Assembly (NCBI GenBank): GCA_009760855.2
Contig: WPIO01000005.1
Span: 2,593,501-2,657,500, forward strand
Length of the DNA stretch: 64,000 nt
Direction of reading: 5' to 3'
Source of the DNA: Cristatella mucedo
Taxonomy: Eukaryota > Bryozoa > Phylactolaemata > Cristatellidae
This document shows positions 5,172 to 60,800 of this stretch, piece after piece. Both the position numbers and the translations under genes were made by a program. Each line of letters begins with the position of its first letter. The stretch's first letter is position 1. The notes below the pieces were generated by a model that was not told where the DNA came from, searched no databases, and saw nothing but the letters and a program-made list of their open reading frames with translations.

Positions 5172-5870
5172 TAATCCCGTCTCGATTTCTGTAACTCACT
5201 GCTTGCTGGCCTACCGGCGTGTGCAATCAGGCTCTTACAGCTGGTGCAAAACTCTGCAGCTAGGCTTGTCTGTCGTGAGCGTCACCGTCGCCATATCACA
5301 CCACTTCTCGCCGACCTGCACTGGCTTCCAGTCAAGCAACGGATCGAAGTCAAGGTTTCGTCGCTCACTTTTAGGTCACTTCATTCTTTGGCTCCAGTCA
5401 ATGTCTCAGATCTACTCCCCTACCAGGCCAAGCATCGCACCACCCGCTTTTTGGAATCCAACAGCCTCCAAATACCACGTACAAACCTCAAATCCTTTGG
5501 AGACCGTGCATTTAGTTCGTATGCTCCAAAAGCCTGGAACTCCCTCCCGACCTGCGTCAGAACATCCCCAGACTTGACCACATTTAAAAAGAACTTGAAA
5601 ACACACCTATTTAGGACAGCACTTTGAGGGTGCATGTGATTTGTCCTTCATGTGCTTATGCGATCTGACGTTGTGCATGCTGCCACTAAACACGTTTGCA
5701 TGCTTACTCTGTGCATGTCACCGCTAACCATGTTTTTCATGTTGTTCATCAAGCATGATATTACTCACCCTTCAATCGCGTTTCCCTTTGCGGCAAATTT
5801 AAAGCGCCTAGAAAGAGATTGAGTTCTCTGAGGGCACTTTATCAAGTGATTATTATTATCATTATAATTA
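5172..5870 (+). mobile_element. LINE family B, 3' end copy B1
   Basis: 5'-truncated non-LTR retrotransposon of the L2/CR1 superclade. The open frame at 5,244-5,627 encodes the region after the reverse-transcriptase fingers and palm: QNSAARLVCRERHRRHITPL, LADLHWLPVKQRIEVK and AWNSLPTCVRTSPDLTTFKK, all standard for L2/CR1 C-termini. It ends with LKTHLFRTAL and a TGA stop. The 3' UTR then runs to AAAGCGCCTAGAAAGAGATT, GAGTTCTCTGAGGGCACTTT and an ATT-rich tail. It has no polymerase catalytic core, so it is dead. It is the least decayed C-terminus of family B here. Confidence 0.85.
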
Positions 5871-16800: not shown

Positions 16801-17069
16801 GAGATAAAACGATCAAGGAAAGCCTGAATATGATGATGGTAAACTGCCTTTACCCAAGGCTCGTAGCTGCAGGCACACGGACGGAGTAGATAATAATAAT
16901 ATGATGAAGATCGACAGAGAACAGCAGATGGCCATATGATGTCATCTCATCAATGACATGAGGTGACGTCTCATCAATGGGGTACTTTAATTACTACCAA
17001 GCACTGAAATGTCGTGGTTGTGTTCCCAGAAGCACCAGCATACTTAAAGCTGGCACTATTACCCTAAGG

Positions 17070-17228
17070 AGCGCCAGGCCGGCAAAACATGTGGCTGTCC
17101 AGGCGAATCCAATTTTCTCGGTCAGGTAGCCGCCAGCTGGCAGTAGGACGAACAACCCAAGTGCAGAGCCGCGTCTTAGCAGCCCACTGACCATGCCACG
17201 TGTTGGCAAGTGGTCCGGGTGACGGATA
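17070..17228 (-). pseudogene. Decayed copy of the SLC18B1-like late exon
   Basis: On the minus strand it reads RGMVSGLLRRGSALGLFVL then PAGGYLTEKIGFAWTATCFA and GLALLR. It is close in DNA to the exon at 2,153-2,321 (the stretch 17,070-17,150 differs at few places) but not to the gene 1 exon at 30.1 kb. The 5' acceptor and the first codons are gone, the conserved TYG is TRG, the GP of the GA-F-x-GP motif is lost, and the last Met codon is AGG. It is not expected to be spliced into a working protein. It shows that the region duplicated at least twice. Confidence 0.75.
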
Positions 17229-17811
17229 TATCCAATGGAGAGTAGGCTCCATATTTTGGGTCATGCCCAGTAGTGACGTTGGATTTACAAGACTACCTAC
17301 CCAGCTTGCTGTGCAGCCCCCTCATCGTAATTCAATGCAGGAAGGTGATTGCATGCCTATAACTGTTGCCACAGTTTATTATGGATGGCTATGAATAATT
17401 CGGCCTAGCACGATTAAAAGCATTGGGCTTTTAACGTATAGCCCAAGATGACTTATTGGTTTGTCTCAGCACAGCATATGATAATCCTAAGTTTTAATAT
17501 AATGTTGCTTGAAGATGGGAAAAGTGACAAAGAGCTGAGGTTATGCAGGCCTATTGCAATTCCATTTTGGCAGGGCTACCGAAAAAAGCCACGGTGCGTC
17601 AGCACCCGGTACTGATTGCGGCAGCAAGGTTTATAAACAAGTCGCGAGGCTCTTACTTTCTAATCCTTTGCTAAAAATTTCTCTGAGACACAGAGTTAAA
17701 TTCTTTCACAGAAACCTAATGCCAGCCGCAGCTTGGCTCCTGCTTTGCAGTTCAGGCTTTGATTGAGCCATAGAAAACTCTTCGGCGTAGCATCCATTAC
17801 GAGCTGCGGTT
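17229..17811. other. No gene seen
   Basis: No recognisable coding or repeat structure. Confidence 0.35.
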
Positions 17812-17925
17812 ATAATAATAATAATAATAATAATAATGCACTTGATAAAGCACCCTCAGAGAACTCAACCTCTTTCTAGGCGCTTTACATTTGCTTTGTG
17901 GCTACTGGTGGATATACAGTATATT
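17812..17925 (-). repeat. LINE family B 3' tail, copy B9
   Basis: (ATA)n then ATGCACTTGATAAAGCACCC, TCAGAGAACTCAACCTCTTT and CTAGGCGCTTTACATTTGC: the reversed LINE B 3' end. Confidence 0.8.
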
Positions 17926-26154: not shown

Positions 26155-26316
26155 GGTCTGTCTCTCTGTCTCTGTCTTTTACTCTATCTATCTCTCTTCT
26201 TTTCTCTCTCTGTTTCTCTCTCTCTCTCTCTCTTTCTCTCTTTCTCTCTCTCGCTCTGATCTCTCACTCTTTCTCTTTCGCTATTTCTCTCTCTCTCTTT
26301 CTCTCTCTCTCGCTGT

Positions 26317-26370
<54 letters not shown>

Positions 26371-26460
26371 CCTCTCTCTCTTTCTCTTTCTCCCAATCTC
26401 TCTCTCTCTCTCACTTTCTCTCGCTCTCTTTCTTGCTCTCTCTCTCACTCAGCCCTCGCT
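26155..26460. repeat. (CT)n microsatellite
   Basis: About 300 bases of TC/TCTC runs with scattered TTTC, TGAT and CCC interruptions. Open frames reading Ser-Leu or Arg-Glu repeats through it are artefacts. Confidence 0.95.
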
Positions 26461-29465: not shown

Positions 29466-30072
29466 GAGAAGCTTTAAGGTCAATTTTTGGAGGGAAAAAA
29501 ATTCGACCGCCGGTGTATCCCATTCTGCCAGGTACTGCAGGTTCACACGGATGAAACATTTTTGGCAATTGCCTGGTGCGAACTTGGAGATATAATTCAA
29601 TTTACCCCGTCGAAAGTACCGGGGCAAGCAAAGGGTGTTAGTAAACATGATTACGGCTTCATGAGACGAGTAAGATTTTTTCGTCAGTGCCCCTATACAT
29701 ACATGTAAGTGTTCAATACTTTTGTCGCCGCTCTTTTTTTTATTCACTTTAGTGTTTTACAAGAACAATTCTGGAGCTTGCTTAGTCGTAAGATTCTCAC
29801 CGCAAATAGATAGGGGATAACCAAACAGACTGCTTGACATCATTGCACTCGCTGGCCTCAGATTCTGTGGGTGCGATTTTAAATGATACTTAAAAGCAAG
29901 TATTTTAGCTGCGATAAGTCGATGATGAGGCTCGAAAGAAAGGATGACATAACCAGCTTTGGCGAATGGAAATTCCTTCTTGATTTAAAAATGTCCCGAT
30001 TCATCACTCAATATCAAGTGGCTTTGTTTTTTCGTAGTAATGAGAGGAATCTATCCCGGATTGACGAATTAC
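29466..30072. other. No gene recognised
   Basis: Overlapping open frames on both strands at 29,448-29,747 have no recognisable domain. The region lies downstream of the last identified gene 1 exon and may contain intron sequence. Confidence 0.3.
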
Positions 30073-30241
30073 CATTAAGAGAGTCAATCCTGCCAAGCAA
30101 GTGGTGGCCCACGAGAATCCAATCCGGTCCACCAAGTAGCTGCCTAGGAGAGGTCCGGTAAATGCTCCTAGAGCGGTAGCTGATCCAAGGACTCCACCAA
30201 CCATGCCATAAGTATCGACATTTTCGGGATAACCACGTTTT
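30073..30241 (-). CDS. SLC18B1-like MFS transporter, late exon (gene 1)
   Basis: A 169-nt minus-strand exon with a TTTGCAG acceptor and a GTAATT donor; one base plus 56 codons, no stop. It reads RGYPENVDTYGMVGGVLG, then SATALGAFTGPLLGSYLVDR and IGFSWATTCLAGLTLLM. These are the helix 10-11 region motifs of SLC18B1 (T-x-G-x-V-x-G, G-A-F-x-G-P, G-F-x-W-A-T). It is the last confidently placed exon of gene 1, whose earlier exons lie at higher coordinates. It needs a preceding exon ending in phase 2, which exon f (31,985-32,085) provides, but family proteins have about 35 more residues in between, so another exon is expected. The remaining helix 12 and tail were not found. Confidence 0.85.
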
Positions 30242-30564
30242 CTGCAAATGCAGATGGTTGCCTGATGAACAGACTAGCATCAAGATCTCTATTGAAGCAG
30301 TCTTTTACTTACACGTTGATTATGAGACTACCGGATGCCTTCAATTGAAAAGTCAAAAACTAGATCCGGCATCCACTTTTCGACTGCATTAATCTGAATG
30401 CTTCTCTACTTATGTAAACTGTATCGTGTTAAAAACTTCTTAACAACGTTTCAAGAGCATATGCCACACGTTCACGAATGCAAGCAATCGACACCACTGG
30501 TTACAATTACTTGTCTTCATGAAGCAAATTCATGACCAATATATCTCCATGCATACATTTGGCG

Positions 30565-32985: not shown

Positions 32986-33859
32986 AGTGAGCTGCGATAA
33001 TTTTTAATTGCTTAGTCATCTGAGACCATCTCACCTTACTCAGTATTATTTAAGTTCCCACATGTGAAATATTATGCCCAGTGTTTTTAAAAATCCTGAT
33101 TTAATTCGTAAGTACTATAACAGTACAGAAAATGAAAAGGTAATATAGTGCTCTATAATATCATAGTATAGTTCTATACACCTTATGAATGCTGAAAATG
33201 AGAGTGATGTCACGTAAATCCTTGCAACGTGCACAGTTTCTAGGTTTTAGGAAAATTTACCTCGGCAAAACTAATGCTTTGTGAGCAACTGGCTTCCAGC
33301 ATCTTCCTGAATTTATAAAATCTGGGAAAGCATGATGTCACTTGGGAATAATTTTCAAACTTTGGGAATATAGGAACTACAAGAGTAGTCTGAAAGATAT
33401 CCAAGGTTCATTAGAGACTCAACAAAAGGATACTAGTTTAAGTAGAGAATGAAACAGCAGAAGACCTGGTTAAGAATTATTTCCGACGGATATACCCAAG
33501 ATGAGATAGAAGGGATATTTTTCCCAGTGTTGCCACCTCGACGTCAAATCACAGCTTGATGGGTAAACAATGCAGGACAGAGAGAAGTGGTGTGATTTGC
33601 CAGGGGCAACAAGTTTAGCTGAGGTGATAATTTTTCCCCCATCTGAAAGCTTCCACTTGAAAAGTCAGTGATAACCACATAAAGTGAGCTACGTAAACAT
33701 GGACAGAATGTCGTGAATGCAGTGACAACGTTGACTACCATATCCTTATCGACGCATGCCCAAAATACAGGCATGTCAGGTAGATCAAAGTAGCCGAATT
33801 GACAGCCGACTGTGGCCTTGTATGCCTCACACTTATTATGATTACTAAAAAATAAACCG
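32986..33859. other. Gene 1 intron sequence
   Basis: AT-rich, nothing recognisable. Confidence 0.45.
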
Positions 33860-33977
33860 ACTGCTTAATAATAGTATTATAAGACTTGTGCGTGTATAGC
33901 ACCCTCAGAGAACCCAATTTCTTCCCAGTCACTTTACATATGCTGTATTGGAAGTATTCTCAAGTGGTTAGTGGTAG
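33860..33977 (-). repeat. LINE family B 3' fragment, copy B14
   Basis: AATAATAGTATTATAAGACT, then GCACCCTCAGAGAACCCAAT, TTCTTCCCAGTCACTTTACA and CAAGTGGTTAGTGGTAGCAT: reversed LINE B end. It is cut at about 33,977, where LINE A begins on the other strand, so one element inserted next to or into the other. Confidence 0.65.
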
Positions 33978-35945
33978 CATGCACAAGACAGTAAACCATT
34001 TACTAGCCAATGCTGTGAGGTCTGACTCCCCAGATATTAAGGGCTCGGCCGAAAAGTTTTCAGCCTTGTTTACTAAAAAAATTGTGTACATTCGTGCCTC
34101 AATCAAGCCCCCTCCGACCAAAGTAATCGCTGTTCCTCAACCTGTGACCTTCCTCAAAAGGTTCCCCAACGTTTCTGCAAGCGATGTGGCTGCCTTAACA
34201 AGGTCAAGCAAAAAGAGCTCGTCTCCTGAAGACCCTATACCTTCATCTCTGTGGTCTTCACCAGCAGACCAACGCCCTGCCATAACCAAGGTTTTTAATG
34301 CTTCTTTGGGAAGAGGGTTTGTCCCCAAGTCCTTCAAATTGGCAATCGTTAGAACCATTCTTAAAAAGCCTGGATTAGACACAGAGATCCTAGCAAACTA
34401 TTGGCCAGTTTCCCTTCTTCCGTTCTTATCAGTGATTCTTGAAAAAATTGTTGCTAAGCAGCTGGTTTAATATATTGAAAATAATGGAATGTCAGAAACA
34501 TTTTAATCAAGGTTCAAGAGGCCGCACTGCACTGAAACTGCTCTCATCCGTGTTAACAATGACATTCTACGTGGCAACGACGACGGGAATGTCACTGCCC
34601 TAGCTCTGCTAGATCTGTCTGCTGCCTTCGACACCATTGATCATGAAGTTCTGCTTGAACGATTGAGAACAACGATCGGTCTGGCAGGCGGAGCACTGGC
34701 GTGGTTTAAATCATACTTGTCTGATCGTGTTCAATCCGTGTCGTGTGGGGTTCAGGTTTCAGACACAAGAAGGGTCACCTGTGGAATTCCTCAAGGGTCT
34801 GTACTTGGTCCCTTGCTGTTCTCCATTTATACACAACCTCTTGGAAAAGTGATTAAGGCACATGGAATAGGATATCACTTCCGTGCTGACGATACTCAGT
34901 TGTATTTGTCATTCAAACCATCGGAATCTGCTGTGGCTACTGAGAAACTGAATGATTGCCTTGCCGATATTCGATCCTGGATGTCGGAAAACTTCCTGAA
35001 ATTAAATGACGGTAAAACCGAACTGCTGCTCATAGGACACCCTAAGCGTGTGGCTGGATTAAAAAGCTTTGCCGTTATAATAGGTGATGCTATTGTGCGA
35101 CCATTACTACGTGCTCGAAATTTAGGTGTCGTGTTCGACAGCTGCCTCAATTTCAAAAGCTTCATTCAGAAGACTGCCTCTACAGCTAGCCATCTAATGC
35201 GATCCCTATCCAAGATCAGGAGCTGTCTCCCGCAGTTGCTTGTAAAAGACTTAACTAGCTCCTTAGTTCTGTCTCGGCGTGATTATTGTAATTCCTTTTT
35301 GGCTGGGCTGCCAAAGAAAGCTATTATGCCTCTACAGCGGACTATGAATATGGCTACAAGGCTGGTCTTCAAGTCCCAGCGGTTTGAGCATGTGTCTCCT
35401 TTGCTGAAAGAGCTAGGATGGCTGCCGGTTGACCAACGGATACAGAGCAAAGTTCTAATGCTGACCTACAAGGCCCTCCACGGCTTGGCTCCTCCATACC
35501 TAGTTGAACTGCTGCACTAGTTTCTGCCTCCTCGTGCCTGCAGGTCCTGTTTAGACAATAAATTAGCTGTCCCATTTCTCCGCTTAAAGACAGTTGGCGA
35601 CAGAAGCTTTAGCTCTGCAAGTCCTAGACTGTGCAACTCGCTTCCACAATTCTTACGCAACGACAACTACTCTCCTACTGCCGACTATAGCACATCCTTT
35701 TCAGCGGTCCTGAGCTTCTACTTCTATGCTACTCTACCATCTATCTCTATCACTACCTCAACTGCTCTCCTGACTCTGCTACACTTCCCACTTTCTCTTT
35801 GTTCCGTGAGATGAAGTCTGTTGGCTACCGAATGCGTACCGAAAGCCGCTTAGGCTGTGAGTGAGCTATGCAAAACTCTCCTGCGTGACACCCACATGGT
35901 CTTTATGACTTTGTAGAGTTGCAGACGGAGATACATTACATTTCA
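33978..35945 (+). mobile_element. LINE family A, longest copy A1 with reverse-transcriptase ORF
   Basis: 5'-truncated non-LTR retrotransposon of the L2/CR1 superclade, lying antisense in a gene 1 intron. One reading frame runs from 33,978 to about 35,815. It contains PVSLLPFLSVILEKIVAKQL (RT1), ALALLDLSAAFDTIDHEVLL at 34,600 (RT motif A, catalytic Asp), GIPQGSVLGPLLF (motif B), HFRADDTQLY at 34,876-34,905 (motif C), TASTASHLMRSLSKIRSCLP, and the C-terminal LGWLPVDQRIQSKVLMLTYK then ALHGLAPPYL. The frame holds three stops (34,468 TAA, 34,504 TAA, 35,518 TAG) and the canonical YADD is RADD, so it is inactive. No endonuclease domain is present. The 3' UTR includes GTTGGCTACCGAATGCGTAC and ends in GGAGATACATTACATTTCAT. 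Confidence 0.9.
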
Positions 35946-39379: not shown

Positions 39380-40255
39380 TTCCAAATCCTTTATCTAGAT
39401 GTTGTGTTCCAGACTGACCTTTCGTAAGACGACCACATCAGCTCCACAGTCAAATCTGCCTACTTTCAGCTACATAACATAGCTAAACTTCGGGCTTGTT
39501 TAGATAAGGATACCACGTCTAAGTTGATCCATGCATTCGTGACATCTCGTCTCGACTTCTGCAACACACTGCTCACTGGCCTACCGGCATGTACGATCAG
39601 GCGATTGCAGCTGGTGCAAAACTCCGCAGCTAGGCTTGTCTGTCGTGAGCCTGGCAGTTGCCACGTCACACCACTTCTCGCCGACCTGCACTGGCAACAG
39701 CCATGCAACGGATTGACTTCGAGGTTTTGCCGCTCACTTTTAGGTCACTTCCTTCTTTGGTTCCAGCCTATCTCTAAGATATCCTCTCCCATCAGGCCAA
39801 GCATCGTACCACCCACTTTTCGGAATCCAACAGTCTACCAATACCTAGTACAAACCTCAAATCCTTTGTAGACCGTGCATTTAGTTCGTATGCTCCCATA
39901 ACCTGGAACTTCCTCCCAACTTCCGTCAGAACATCCCCTGACTTGATCACATTTAGAATTAACTTAAAAATACCTATTTAGGACAGCATTTAGTGGGTCC
40001 CTGGGATTCGTCCTTCATGTGCTTATGCGTGCTGACACAGTGCATGCTGCCACTAACCACATTTATATGCTGACCCTATGCATGTCTCCCCTAACCTGTT
40101 ATTCATTTTGTTTGTTTATCAAGCATGATATTACTCACCATTCGATTGCATTTCCCTTCGCTGCCAATGTAAAGCGCCTAGAGAGAGATTGAGTTCTCTG
40201 AGGGCGCTTTAGCAAGTGCATTATTATTATTACTATAATTAATATTATTTAGGTT
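39380..40255 (+). mobile_element. LINE family B, longest 3' copy B2
   Basis: Begins near GTTCCAGACTGACCTTTCGT and reads, in the frame open at 39,524-39,871, HAFVTSRLDFCNTLLTGLPA then QLVQNSAARLVCREPGSCHV and TPLLADLHW, the region downstream of the RT palm. A frameshift follows. The 3' UTR carries CATGCTGCCACTAACCACAT, AAAGCGCCTAGAGAGAGATT, GAGTTCTCTGAGGGCGCTTT and AGCAAGTGC plus (ATT)n to 40,255. No catalytic core. Confidence 0.85.
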
Positions 40256-42826: not shown

Positions 42827-43159
42827 CTGGAATACCAGTAATTCCGTGTAATAAACGATCATATGGTGGCCTGTCATTTTTGGCCTTACATGCATATGAG
42901 TAAAAAGTAGCTTATTTCAATGCGATCACCTATTTTTATTTTATTATTTATTATTAATTGTTATTTCTATTTTATATTATTTGTTTTTTGAATTGTTCAG
43001 ATCCACATACAGGGACGGGCTACGTACTCACCTGATTAAAATCACTAAGATCATAACTTTGTAAGCTAAACTCAACTTCTATTTGTTATGTAACCTGGTT
43101 AGGTTTAAAAGCAGGGAAACTTTACTAAGAATCGACTGCTGTCATAGGTTGACTTAGCG
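42827..43159. other. Gene 1 intron sequence
   Basis: Nothing recognisable. Confidence 0.45.
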
Positions 43160-43346
43160 AAGTGGTTCTCAATCTGTTAGTCGCGAACCCTACAATTGTT
43201 GAACGACCCTTTCACAGGGATTGCCTGAGACCACTGGAAAACATGCATTTCTGCATTTCGCGAACAATAGCTTTGTGGTTGGGGGTCACGACAAATTAAG
43301 GAACTGTATTAAAATTTCACGGCATCAGGAAGGTTGGGAACCACTG
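43160..43346. mobile_element. SPIN-like non-autonomous hAT transposon
   Basis: A 187-bp element. Its ends are AAGTGGTTCTCAATCT on the left and AGGTTGGGAACCACTG on the right, imperfect inverted repeats of the CAGTGGTTCTCAACC type. It is flanked by an 8-bp target duplication, ACTTAGCG before and ACTTAGAG after (7 of 8). Inside are TAGTCGCGAACCC, GAACGACCCTTTCACAGGG, TGGTTGGGGGTCACGACAAA and GAACTGTATTAAA. From memory these match the ends and body of the SPIN (SPACE INVADERS)/URR1 hAT family known from tetrapods and a few invertebrates. No transposase is encoded. Confidence 0.8.
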
Positions 43347-43739
43347 ACTTAGAGGCACAGACACCAGGAACTCAACTTAACCACCTGCACCTAAACTAAC
43401 CAAAGCTAAATTTTACATAAATATTGTAGCCGATTGTTTTCTATAACTAAATAATTCATTATTCAAACGTGGCAATCAAATGTTTTCTAATCATTTTCTA
43501 TTTTCAAAAAAGCAAGTAGCCTCTGAAAGGTACAATTTTGAGTGCTAACACTACCAAAAAGGACGATTCATTTGGCTAGGTCTAATGCTATGAGGAACCG
43601 GTAAGTTTTAAACTTGTATACGATTTACAAAATCTAAAGATAATTAAAAGTTTGTCAGCCGTGAGGTGAGTTTGGGAGCACACATTTTAACTGATGGCAC
43701 GGTCTCTTCAAGGTACTTAAAGTTTATTACTAGAGTAGA
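43347..43739. other. Gene 1 intron sequence
   Basis: Nothing recognisable. Confidence 0.45.
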
Positions 43740-46628: not shown

Positions 46629-46859
46629 GCACGTATACTCGTATTGGGCTTGAAAATAGAAGCAAGATTAATTTGCTTCCTAGCTTGCACGTATACTCGT
46701 ATTGGGCTTGAAATAGAAGCTAGATTAATTTGCTTCCTAGCTTGCACGTATACTTGTATTGGGCTTGAAAATAGAAGCTAGATTAATTTGCTTCCTAGCT
46801 TGCACGTATACTTGTATTGGGCTTGAAAATAGAAGCTAGATCAATTTGCTTCCTAGCTT
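46629..46859. repeat. Minisatellite, four 57-58-bp units
   Basis: Units start at 46,629, 46,687, 46,744 and 46,802. Each begins GCACGTATACTCGTATTGGG, continues CTTGAAAATAGAAGCTAGAT and ends TAATTTGCTTCCTAGCTT. Units differ by one or two bases (TCG versus TTG, one lost A, one TCAATT). Within each unit GAAGCTAG and CTTCCTAGC can pair as a small hairpin. Confidence 0.95.
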
Positions 46860-48083
46860 GAGCAATTTCGTGCATTGCGGCTTGAAAAAATTCCTAAGCA
46901 AAGTAAAGTGTACTAGTTAACCTTTTCTTCTCAATTCAGGTAAATACACAGTGCTAACAAGAATTATTTCGAATGCCACAGAAATAATAAAGGGCTTTAA
47001 TTACAGCGTCAACAAATATGATTGATCACTCAGAGGTGCCGAGCTAAAGCTGGCGGAGTGTGCAGTTGCAGTTGGAACACCTGATGTCAGAAAGGTGGTT
47101 TGGCGAGCACTTGCACGCAGGACTATGGGCTCATGCAGCAGGTCCCTTAAGTCAATTAAAACAGAATTTATTCTGCACCATTGACAAATTTCAACCTGGA
47201 AGATAAACGTCAAGCAGTTCGTAATTTACTTTAATTACGAGTTCGAAGGGCCGTAAGAGCTTTGATTTTGGGAAAATCAATATCATAAAGCTCAAGCTGC
47301 GTTTACTTATTAAACGAAAAGCTGGAGCTTGACTGTGCATGGACAGTTTATTTAAGCATAACAGTAAATCATTGGCTGTTTTCGGCGGTGACCGGTTTGC
47401 CTGAGATGTCAATATAGGATACTAATATGAGATTGTCGTTGACTGATAGTGGTGTAAAATCGTATCTCGTTATTTCCTTTTTGTATGTACAAGACGAAAC
47501 TAGTTTATATGGAATTCCCTACACGGTGTACACTTATGGTTTTACAAAATGTAGTGCGTCTGACTTTTTCATATGGAAGAGTATACCTAAGGATGCAGCT
47601 GCATTAGTTGCTCGTCTTCAATATGAGCATTTTGAAATCACACCCGCAGATTCTGGAATACTTTATACAGCCACACGCGGTTTCCTAATAAAGCCACTGC
47701 TGCTGGTTTAAAGGATTGTTAAGTAGTAAAATCTCGGAGGACTTTTTACAATTTCTAAATTATAATTGGTGGCTTAAGCAATAATAGAGCGTGAAGTCAT
47801 AACTTTTTAAGAAACAATCAGCAGGCATGTGATAAGGGATCAAGGAGGGCTATCATAGAAATCCAGTTGAACAACATACATGGATTTTTGTCACTTGCCG
47901 TCTTGCGCACACTATGCTCTAAAGGTCAAAATAGTGAGTTTAGCGATGTATGCATTATTGGTTAAAGTGCTAACACAATAGGACAAACTTTTCAGTTCTC
48001 AGCAAATTAAACAGATATGTTTTTTATATAAATACTCTTGGATTCATTTAAATACTTCGAAATATCTAAGTATTTTACCTTAC
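46860..48083. other. Gene 1 intron sequence
   Basis: A 94-codon plus-strand open frame at 47,427-47,711 and minus frames at 47,001-47,412 show no family motif. Confidence 0.4.
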
Positions 48084-50719: not shown

Positions 50720-51540
50720 CCAAAATTGGCTCTGCCTGCATATATCCTGTCAAACCTTCACGTAATCTTGGTATTCAGCTCCAAGATGGCCTTTAATTAG
50801 GCGATAACTCCAGCTCCGCAGTCAAATCTCTATACTTTCTGCTAGATGGCATTATTACAATTCGAATTATAAAATTCTAAAATTGCTTAGAACAGGAACA
50901 CTGCATCCACACTGGTCCATGTATCCTCTATTGACTTTTGTAACTCACTGCTTGCTAGTCTCCCAGCGTGTGCAATCAAACGCTTACAGTCGGTGGGAAA
51001 CTTAGCAGCTAGGCTCACCTGCAGTAAATCTCGCAGTTACCACATCGTACCACTTCTTGCCGACCTGCACAGGCTCCCAATCAACCTAGGCATCGACTTC
51101 GAGGTTCTCCCACTTGCTTTTAGATCCCTTCATTTTCTGGCCCCAGCCTATTTACCAGAAATACTCCACTACCAGACAAAGAATCGTACAAACTGCCATT
51201 CTGACTTACATAATTTAGTCATACTTCGTTCGAACCTCATAAAAAGTTAGAGACAGTGCCTTTAGTTCAAATGCTCCGATAGCCTGGAACTCAGTATCGA
51301 CGTTCGTCACAACGTCCCGTGACATAAAGACACTGAAGAAGAAGTTTAAAACACCCATGTCTATTGCAGCATTTGGTTAGTCTTTGAGATATGTTCTTCC
51401 TGTGCATGTACCTGCTTACACTACGCCGGCTGCTTGGGGATGTTACCATCGATCATTTGGTAACGCTTTTTATACAGCGTCTGTAAAGTGCCAAGAAAGA
51501 GATTTAGTTCGCTGATAGTGCTATTCAAATTATATGATAA
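50720..51540 (+). mobile_element. LINE family B, copy B4
   Basis: Frame 50,993-51,250 reads NLAARLTCSKSRSYHIVPLL then ADLHRLPINLGIDFEVLPLA and FRSLHFLAPAYLPEILHYQT, the L2/CR1 C-terminal region. Upstream, TTGACTTTTGTAACTCACTG matches B1. The 3' UTR is degraded (AGAAAGAGATTTAGTTCGCT) and lacks a clean ATT tail. Confidence 0.75.
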
Positions 51541-55365: not shown

Positions 55366-55447
55366 ACAGAGGGCAGAGAGATAGAGATAGAGATAGAGAG
55401 ATAAAGAGAGAGAGAGAGAGAAAGAGAAAGAGAGAGAGAGAGAGCAG

Positions 55448-55489
<42 letters not shown>

Positions 55490-55600
55490 CGAAAGTGAGA
55501 GAGAGAGAGAGAAAAAGAGAGAGAAAAAAAGAGAGAGAGCAAGAGTGAGACAACGAGCGAGTAAGAGAGAGAGAGAGAGAAAGTCTGAGAGAGAGGGAGA

Positions 55601-55639
<39 letters not shown>

Positions 55640-55708
55640 CGATCAGAGTGAGAGAGAAAGAGAGAGAGAGAGAAAAAGAGTGAGACAGACAGAAAGAGAT
55701 GGAGAGAA

Positions 55709-55751
<43 letters not shown>

Positions 55752-55850
55752 AAGAGATGGAGAGAAACATAGAGAGAGAGAGAGAGAGAGAGAGAGTGAG
55801 AGAGAAAAAGAGAGAGAGAGAGCAGAGTGAGAGAGAGAGAAAGTGTCAAA
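55366..55850. repeat. (GA)n microsatellite, about 485 bp
   Basis: Runs of AGAG with scattered A-rich, GCAGA and GATAG interruptions. It lies in the 8.1-kb intron between exons a and b of gene 1, so the transcript is CU-rich here. Ser-Leu and Arg-Glu frames through it are artefacts. Confidence 0.95.

Positions 55851-60429: not shown

Positions 60430-60800
<371 letters not shown>

What the first reader, a model, noticed from the sequence alone, without database searches (positions are those of the whole stretch)
43160..43346. SPIN-like hAT element in an invertebrate-looking genome: possible horizontal transfer
The 187-bp element has SPIN/URR1-type ends, internal blocks and an 8-bp target duplication. 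SPIN is a textbook case of horizontal transfer, found in scattered tetrapods and in a few invertebrates such as a kissing bug and a pond snail. Similarity to the tetrapod consensus, as I remember it, is far above what vertical descent would leave in a neutral sequence. The imperfect target duplication (7 of 8) indicates some age.
Basis: partly seen in the sequence, partly recalled or inferred. Interest (0 to 1): 0.75.

Follow-up and report, generated by a model that had tools for sequence, protein, structure and literature searches.

The report
SPIN-like jumping gene in an invertebrate
A short, worn-out copy of a cut-and-paste jumping gene sits here; it belongs to a family of many copies in this invertebrate genome whose reconstructed sequence closely resembles a jumping gene known for hopping between unrelated animals, which suggests, but does not prove, transfer between species.

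Summary
Window 43160-43346 is a 187-bp non-autonomous hAT-type element with inverted ends and an 8-bp target duplication (ACTTAGCG/ACTTAGAG, 7 of 8, centre TA). The window's own genome (572 Mb) holds a large family of it: 2336 first-look candidates with the family consensus as query, 40 scored. Of 58 distinct copies, 39 have flanking 8-mers at least 7/8 alike, against 1.14 on average when flanks are re-paired.

Mouse sequences printed in papers agree (18/20, 18/20, 19/20, 59/70). A URR1 internal stretch, recalled, was also found. Three 3.0-3.3 kb copies carry both ends and a broken coding region with a sub-threshold hAT match.

The host is not a vertebrate: its mitochondrial COX1 reads AGA/AGG as residues. 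The window copy is unusually worn (80% to consensus; the other 39 average 93%). It is a new host for a known kind of element.

The parts
43152..43159 (.). left target-site duplication ACTTAGCG
   Evidence: fits nnnTAnnn, the TcBuster target consensus (PMC3499496, passages)
43160..43346 (+). 187-bp non-autonomous hAT-type element (SPIN/URR1-like MITE), copy L001 of the genome family
43160..43175 (+). left terminal inverted repeat (AAGTGGTTCTCAATCT; family consensus CAGCGGTTCTCAACCT)
43160..43252 (+). left block shared with the recalled SPIN/URR1 5' end and, in the family consensus, with the first 93 bases of the long copy L147
43266..43346 (+). right block (about consensus bases 107-187) shared with the recalled URR1 3' end and, in the family consensus, with the last 80 bases of L147
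43331..43346 (-). right terminal inverted repeat (read inwards CAGTGGTTCCCAACCT)
43347..43354 (.). right target-site duplication ACTTAGAG (7 of 8)

Best explanation
The element is an old, decayed copy of a non-autonomous (MITE) family. An internal deletion of a roughly 3-kb SPIN/URR1-like hAT transposon (Buster/Charlie side of hAT) joined about 93 bp of the left end to about 80 bp of the right end. SHOWN: ends, 8-bp duplications centred on TA, many interspersed copies, and long copies with the same ends and a broken coding region. INFERRED: the coding region made the transposase, which bound the shared ends in trans, cut the short copies out and pasted them at nnnTAnnn sites; the family amplified mainly in one wave, and the copies sampled have since decayed. 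INFERRED, most likely: the founder reached this invertebrate lineage horizontally, from the same pool of SPIN/OC1/URR1 elements that entered tetrapods; direction and route are unknown.
For: Anatomy. Family: 1421 and 2336 first-look candidates, of which 40 were scored each time and matched; fetched copies lie on many contigs of up to 24.8 Mb. Duplications: 39 of 58 distinct copies at least 7/8, against 1.14 on average (maximum 6) with re-paired flanks; TA at the centre in 47 of 58 left and 48 of 58 right flanks. Consensus of 40 copies: 90/92 to the SPIN 5' end and 171/187 to URR1 as recalled; 59/70 to a mouse genomic stretch printed in PMC8376875 (local score 88, shuffle maximum 26); 18/20 and 18/20 to two mouse primers of PMC2767504. 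The mouse primer of PMC6221546 differs from the consensus at one of 20 bases by eye. A 71-base URR1 stretch recalled from memory, of which about the first 45 bases are absent from the window family, is matched at 86-96% by all 40 scored of 100 candidates. Long copies: left and right internal probes match within spans of 2.8-3.1 kb at three places; the elements fetched are 3288, 2956 and 3110 bp, with flanking 8-mers alike at 7, 2 and 8 positions; pairwise K2P 0.163-0.175. One of five coding pieces matches PF05699 below cut-off, E 0.043. Host not vertebrate: AGA 7 and AGG 4 in frame in COX1.
Against: The SPIN and URR1 references are recalled, not from a database. Subterminal hAT sequence can be under selection for transposase binding, so likeness of some 90 bp at the left and 135 bp at the right does not alone prove a recent common source. 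No transposase comparison with a tetrapod SPIN was possible. The PF05699 match is below its cut-off, four of five coding pieces had no Pfam match, and one piece had no PDB match. Of the three long copies one has an exact duplication, one 7/8, and L146 only 2/8. The window copy is an outlier (79.7% to consensus), so an older wave is possible. Exact patterns and similarity searches outside the host found no relative, though those collections are not of animal genomes.
Confidence: 0.68

Rival explanations
1. A very old, widespread hAT lineage inherited vertically (or exchanged long ago) whose ends and subterminal regions stay alike because the transposase must bind them; the match to SPIN/URR1 reflects function, not recent transfer.
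For: The terminal 15 bp are shared by many hAT/Charlie elements (recalled). Between the consensus and recalled URR1 only one mismatch lies in the first 20 bases and none in the last 20. The left and right blocks are the parts kept in the MITE.
Against: Similarity to recalled sequence extends inwards: the URR1 stretch, and the recalled SPIN continuation, 29/35 in L141 and L144, 22/35 in L143, 11/35 in L142 (typed only after these loci had been seen). The consensus is 90/92 to the SPIN 5' end, while sampled copies have drifted about 7%. Among the 40 copies scored against the consensus none was above 96%, so no recent activity was seen that would maintain the ends.
Confidence: 0.22
2. Only the generic hAT ends are shared; the resemblance to SPIN is a coincidence of memory.
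Against: The references were fixed before any genome copy was seen, yet the consensus matches 90/92 and 171/187, and a probe from the recalled URR1 interior hit the genome. Mouse sequence printed in three papers agrees.
Confidence: 0.04
3. The host assembly is contaminated with vertebrate DNA and the family is not the host's.
For: Similarity to vertebrate elements.
Against: Fetched copies lie on many contigs of up to 24.8 Mb. The family has its own internal junction, unlike recalled rodent URR1. The window around the copy has CpG o/e 0.77.
Confidence: 0.02
4. The window copy belongs to an earlier, separate wave than the bulk of the family.
For: It is 79.7% identical to the consensus (K2P 0.244), while the other 39 average about 93% (K2P about 0.07).
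Against: It has the same 187-bp structure. In an alignment that includes 10 flanking bases on each side, 41 of its 47 differences from the majority are shared with at least one of the 39 other copies, so they mark no separate group clearly. One copy cannot establish a subfamily.
Confidence: 0.15

Closest known systems
SPIN (SPACE INVADERS) hAT transposons
   Same: Consensus 90/92 to the 5' end as recalled; a recalled continuation partly found in longer copies; long form of about 3 kb with short MITEs (SPIN's own sizes are recalled); published occurrence across phyla, e.g. Rhodnius (PMC11614815, passages).
   Different: A new host; the right part of the SPIN MITE was not compared; the long copies are broken; no database alignment.
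URR1 (rodent hAT MITE)
   Same: Collinear 171/187 as recalled; 132-134 aligned bases of the URR1 right end at 114-119 identities in the three long copies; interior found.
   Different: About 40 bp of the recalled URR1 middle is missing in the window family; longer copies here have other internal sequence.
OC1 (OposCharlie1)
   Same: Autonomous element of 2,571 bp with a 192-bp MITE and spread into 12 animal lineages (PMC3621081, parts 1 and 2 of 3 read).
   Different: OC1 sequence not available here; not compared.
TcBuster / Buster family
   Same: 8-bp nnnTAnnn target (PMC3499496, passages) matches the flanks here.
   Different: Insect element; no sequence comparison made.
Another hAT in the same genome (L041-L070)
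   Same: hAT C-terminal domain PF05699.
   Different: 30 fetched copies at least 98.5% identical (mean 99.3%), open frames, no SPIN-like ends within the 3.2-kb loci.

Membership tests
hAT superfamily | 8-bp target-site duplication | tested here: met
   Window copy 7/8; 39 of 58 distinct copies at least 7/8.
hAT superfamily | hAT transposase with C-terminal dimerisation domain in the autonomous partner | tested here: inconclusive
   Three long copies with both ends; one of five coding pieces matches PF05699 at E 0.043, 14 bits against cut-off 21.4; four match nothing.
Buster group of hAT | target consensus nnnTAnnn | tested here: met
   TA centre in 47/58 left and 48/58 right flanks; consensus from PMC3499496.
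SPIN | SPIN ends and subterminal sequence beyond the 15-bp inverted repeat | tested here: inconclusive
   Consensus 90/92, window copy 71/92, but the reference is recalled from memory, so this is a strong lead and not a database test.
SPIN | autonomous consensus about 90% or more identical to that of other hosts (90-95% is reported for OC1) | not testable with these tools
   No SPIN full-length sequence at hand.
SPIN | patchy presence, absent from close relatives | not testable with these tools
   Relatives of the host are not held (note).
URR1 | collinear full-length MITE including the middle | tested here: inconclusive
   Against a recalled reference about 40 bp of the middle is absent from the window family; other, longer copies carry the URR1 right-internal stretch.
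OC1 | OC1 consensus identity | not tested
host is not a vertebrate | mitochondrial code differs from that of vertebrates | tested here: met
   COX1 on contig C688: AGA 7, AGG 4 in frame, no TAA/TAG inside.

The most novel reading that the evidence does not exclude
The very SPIN lineage that swept through tetrapods also entered an invertebrate lineage, with a long form of about 3 kb and a very numerous MITE family whose sampled copies have drifted about 7-8%. If the rate used for OC1 in marsupials (3.21e-9 per site per year) held here, that would be about 24 million years, inside the 15-45 My range published for OC1 transfers.
Probability: 0.55. Interest if true: 0.62.

Novelty: new member of a known kind. 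Interest (0 to 1): 0.5.

Why it matters
If true, it adds an invertebrate host, with both short and long forms, to one of the best documented cases of DNA spreading between unrelated animals. The long broken copies make it possible to date the arrival and to place it in the SPIN tree, and so to ask which invertebrates may have served as a bridge. Each further host tests whether these invasions were a short pandemic-like event or a standing process.

Tried and rejected
Searches for the element or its ends outside the host gave no relative: phages (one match of 31 bases at E 0.6), plasmids, E. coli genomes, viral contigs (exact patterns), genome contigs (exact patterns). Rfam and tRNA scans of the window: 0 hits. 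A LINE reverse transcriptase matched patterns in 3 viral-contig stretches, none confirmed. The recalled URR1 found nothing in phages or plasmids. A PDB search with one 192-aa piece of the broken coding region: 0.

The mouse primers are weak evidence for the window copy on its own: both match it at 16/20, but the first also reaches 16/20 at two other window places.

The abundant intact hAT of this genome was considered as the mobilising partner and set aside: in 30 fetched loci (L041-L070) no SPIN-like end scored above chance, though its left end may lie outside the fetched stretches. Of the 138 PF05699 matches (150 of 766 candidates scored), 63 belong to that strong set; for 40 of the 75 weaker ones about 630-680 bp downstream were checked for a SPIN-like right end and none scored above 29, the chance level; 35 were not checked. 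The molluscan haemocyanin domain PF14830 gave no match, but it rang in no control either, so this says nothing. Paper searches by sequence word gave useful mouse sequence in PMC2767504, PMC8376875 and PMC6221546 (one passage each). PMC2837401 repeats the primers of PMC2767504; PMC8028178 (Dscaml1 primer) and PMC10216283 (XBP1 primer) look like chance hits; PMC5486091 showed no occurrence on reading. Seven other papers of those listings were not opened. PMC11008031 was seen as an outline with abstract and PMC3606216 as passages; neither carries a claim here.

Full report
Observation. The 13-base end motif occurs with one mismatch at 43160-43172 (+) and at 43334-43346 (-); the 21 other window matches have three mismatches each, and the total of 23 is at chance level. 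The first 16 bases match the inverted last 16 at 13 positions, and the flanks are ACTTAGCG and ACTTAGAG. A motif-free scan for inverted ends with 8-bp duplications found two places in the window, this one and 33259-33625; five shuffles of the window without microsatellites gave 0,0,1,0,0.

Comparison from memory, before genome data. These references come from no database. Printed sequence: two mouse primers in PMC2767504 (one passage read) match the window element at 16 of 20 each; for the first primer two other window places do as well, for the second the next best is 14.

The family in its own genome. After several unanswered requests the host genome became searchable: 572,011,866 bases in 688 contigs, no relatives held. 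The window element found 1421 first-look candidates; 40 were scored and all matched, 39 of them at 78-82%. These 40 copies (L001-L040) gave a majority consensus. Against it the window copy is 79.7% identical (K2P 0.244); the mean of all 40 is 92.7% (K2P 0.078), hence about 93% and 0.07 for the other 39. The 40 were picked by likeness to the window copy, so the mean may understate the family's divergence. The consensus matches the previously typed SPIN 5' end at 90 of 92 and URR1 at 171 of 187; about half of the 16 URR1 differences lie at CpG sites, by eye. It matches a mouse genomic stretch printed in PMC8376875 (one passage read) at 59 of 70 (score 88, shuffle maximum 26) and the two PMC2767504 primers at 18 of 20 each. 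The Kcnq1ot1 primer of PMC6221546 (one passage read) differs at one of 20 bases by eye. With the consensus as query there are 2336 candidates; 40 were scored, giving 41 matches: 40 at 94-96% and one at 85%. None was above 96%, so nothing seen suggests recent activity. Candidate counts are first-look numbers, not verified copies.

Target sites. Of 70 loci (L001-L040, L111-L140), 7 did not reach both ends and 5 repeated a copy already counted; of the 58 left, 39 have flanking 8-mers alike at 7 or 8 positions, against 1.14 on average (maximum 6) over 200 re-pairings of flanks. TA is central in 47 left and 48 right flanks. This is the nnnTAnnn target reported for TcBuster (PMC3499496, passages).

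Beyond the ends. A 71-base stretch of URR1, recalled, whose last 25 bases or so are shared with the window family and the rest not, was searched next: 100 candidates, 40 scored, all matching at 86-96%. The four loci fetched (L141-L144) hold elements of 315-482 bp with the same ends; L141 is flanked by atctagag/ctctagag and L144 by ttttagtg on both sides. The recalled continuation of SPIN from base 86 on matches 29 of 35 bases in L141 and L144, 22 in L143 and 11 in L142. That continuation was typed only after these loci had been printed, so unlike the first 92 bases it is not a blind test.

Long copies. Pairing the places of a left-internal probe (19 candidates, 19 matches) with those of a right-internal probe (60 candidates, 40 scored and matched) gave three places where the two span 2.8-3.1 kb. 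The elements fetched are 3288 bp (L145, flanks GTTTAAGC/GATTAAGC, 7 of 8), 2956 bp (L146, GGTCAGTG/CTCTAGCA, 2 of 8) and 3110 bp (L147, ATCTAAAT on both sides). Their pairwise K2P is 0.163-0.175, that is 0.08-0.09 each from a common source, in line with the short copies. In one 576-base coding stretch third codon positions show no excess of changes (26/190, 31/189, 17/190 for L145 and 26/190, 26/189, 22/190 for L146 against L147), as expected for decay after insertion. The MITE looks like an internal deletion of this form: its first 93 bases align to the first 93 of L147 (85 identical) and its bases 107-187 to the last 80 (70 identical). The coding region has stops and frame changes in all three. 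One of five pieces searched matched PF05699 at E 0.043, below cut-off; four matched nothing. Motifs that look to me like a BED finger and a Buster-type C terminus are recalled resemblance only.

Host. CpG o/e is 0.77. COX1 lies on contig C688 with 11 TGA in the matched part. The stop-to-stop frame of 517 codons has 7 AGA, 4 AGG, 12 ATA, 15 TGA, 2 AAA and no TAA or TAG. AGA/AGG as residues excludes the vertebrate code. That serine, methionine and lysine fit at AGR, ATA and AAA, which would favour the code of protostomes over that of echinoderms, rests on remembered conservation. Phylum and species are not settled.

Mechanism and verdict. Shown: structure, family, long form, decay, non-vertebrate host. 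Inferred: movement in trans by the long form's transposase, and arrival by horizontal transfer. The argument for transfer is that a non-coding sequence in a non-vertebrate agrees with printed mouse sequence, and with recalled tetrapod consensus at 91-98%, while sampled copies have drifted by 7-8%. The argument against is that ends and subterminal parts may be held alike by transposase binding, and that the closest references are from memory. The published background, that SPIN, OC1, hAT1 and ET in Rhodnius share up to about 98.1% identity with those of mammals, was seen in passages of PMC11614815. For OC1, 90-95% identity between hosts and 12 invaded lineages were seen in PMC3621081 (parts 1 and 2 of 3).

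Noticed in passing
L041-L070 (own genome, e.g. G000:C62:104187-104423): A different hAT: 30 fetched copies are at least 98.5% identical over their longest shared stretch in all 435 pairs (mean 99.3%). Among the 63 strongest PF05699 matches 16 lie in open frames of 635-642 aa, so it looks recently active; the shared part often ends before an (AT)n run in L046.
   Followed up: partly
2057-2503, 16997-17260, 30007-30273 (minus strand): Three SLC18B1-like (MFS) exon copies, a likely tandem array; the first matches SLC18B1 in the PDB at E 4.5e-11, and all three match MFS_1 below cut-off.
   Followed up: partly
33883-35520 (+): Reverse transcriptase of a non-LTR-type retrotransposon (RVT_1, E 6e-20, in 34507-35517); the frame before it, 33883-34467, had no Pfam match. 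Related fragments at 5175-5624, 39428-39868, 50891-51247 and elsewhere.
   Followed up: partly
17812-17895 and six similar places (nine for the inner block): Repeat with an ATA run followed by a conserved block (CCCTCAGAGAACTCAATCTCTTTCTAGGCGCTTTACATTTGC-like), perhaps a retrotransposon tail (D8 and D9).
   Followed up: no
46629-46860: Four tandem copies of a 58-bp unit, 97% matches.
   Followed up: no
33259-33625: Second place with inverted 13-bp ends (11/13) and 8-bp flanks 7/8 alike; another old DNA element or chance.
   Followed up: no
G000:C676:2828045-2828224 (+) and 2828317-2828503 (-): Two copies of the family in opposite orientation, 92 bp apart.
   Followed up: no
G000:C166:4375626-4376390, C83, C549, C299: COX1 fragments outside contig C688 that still need TGA read-through; perhaps nuclear insertions of mitochondrial DNA.
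   Followed up: no
26157-26450, 55375-55840, 60489-60699: Two long impure CT/GA arrays (about 290 and 470 bp) and a 210-bp AC array.
   Followed up: no
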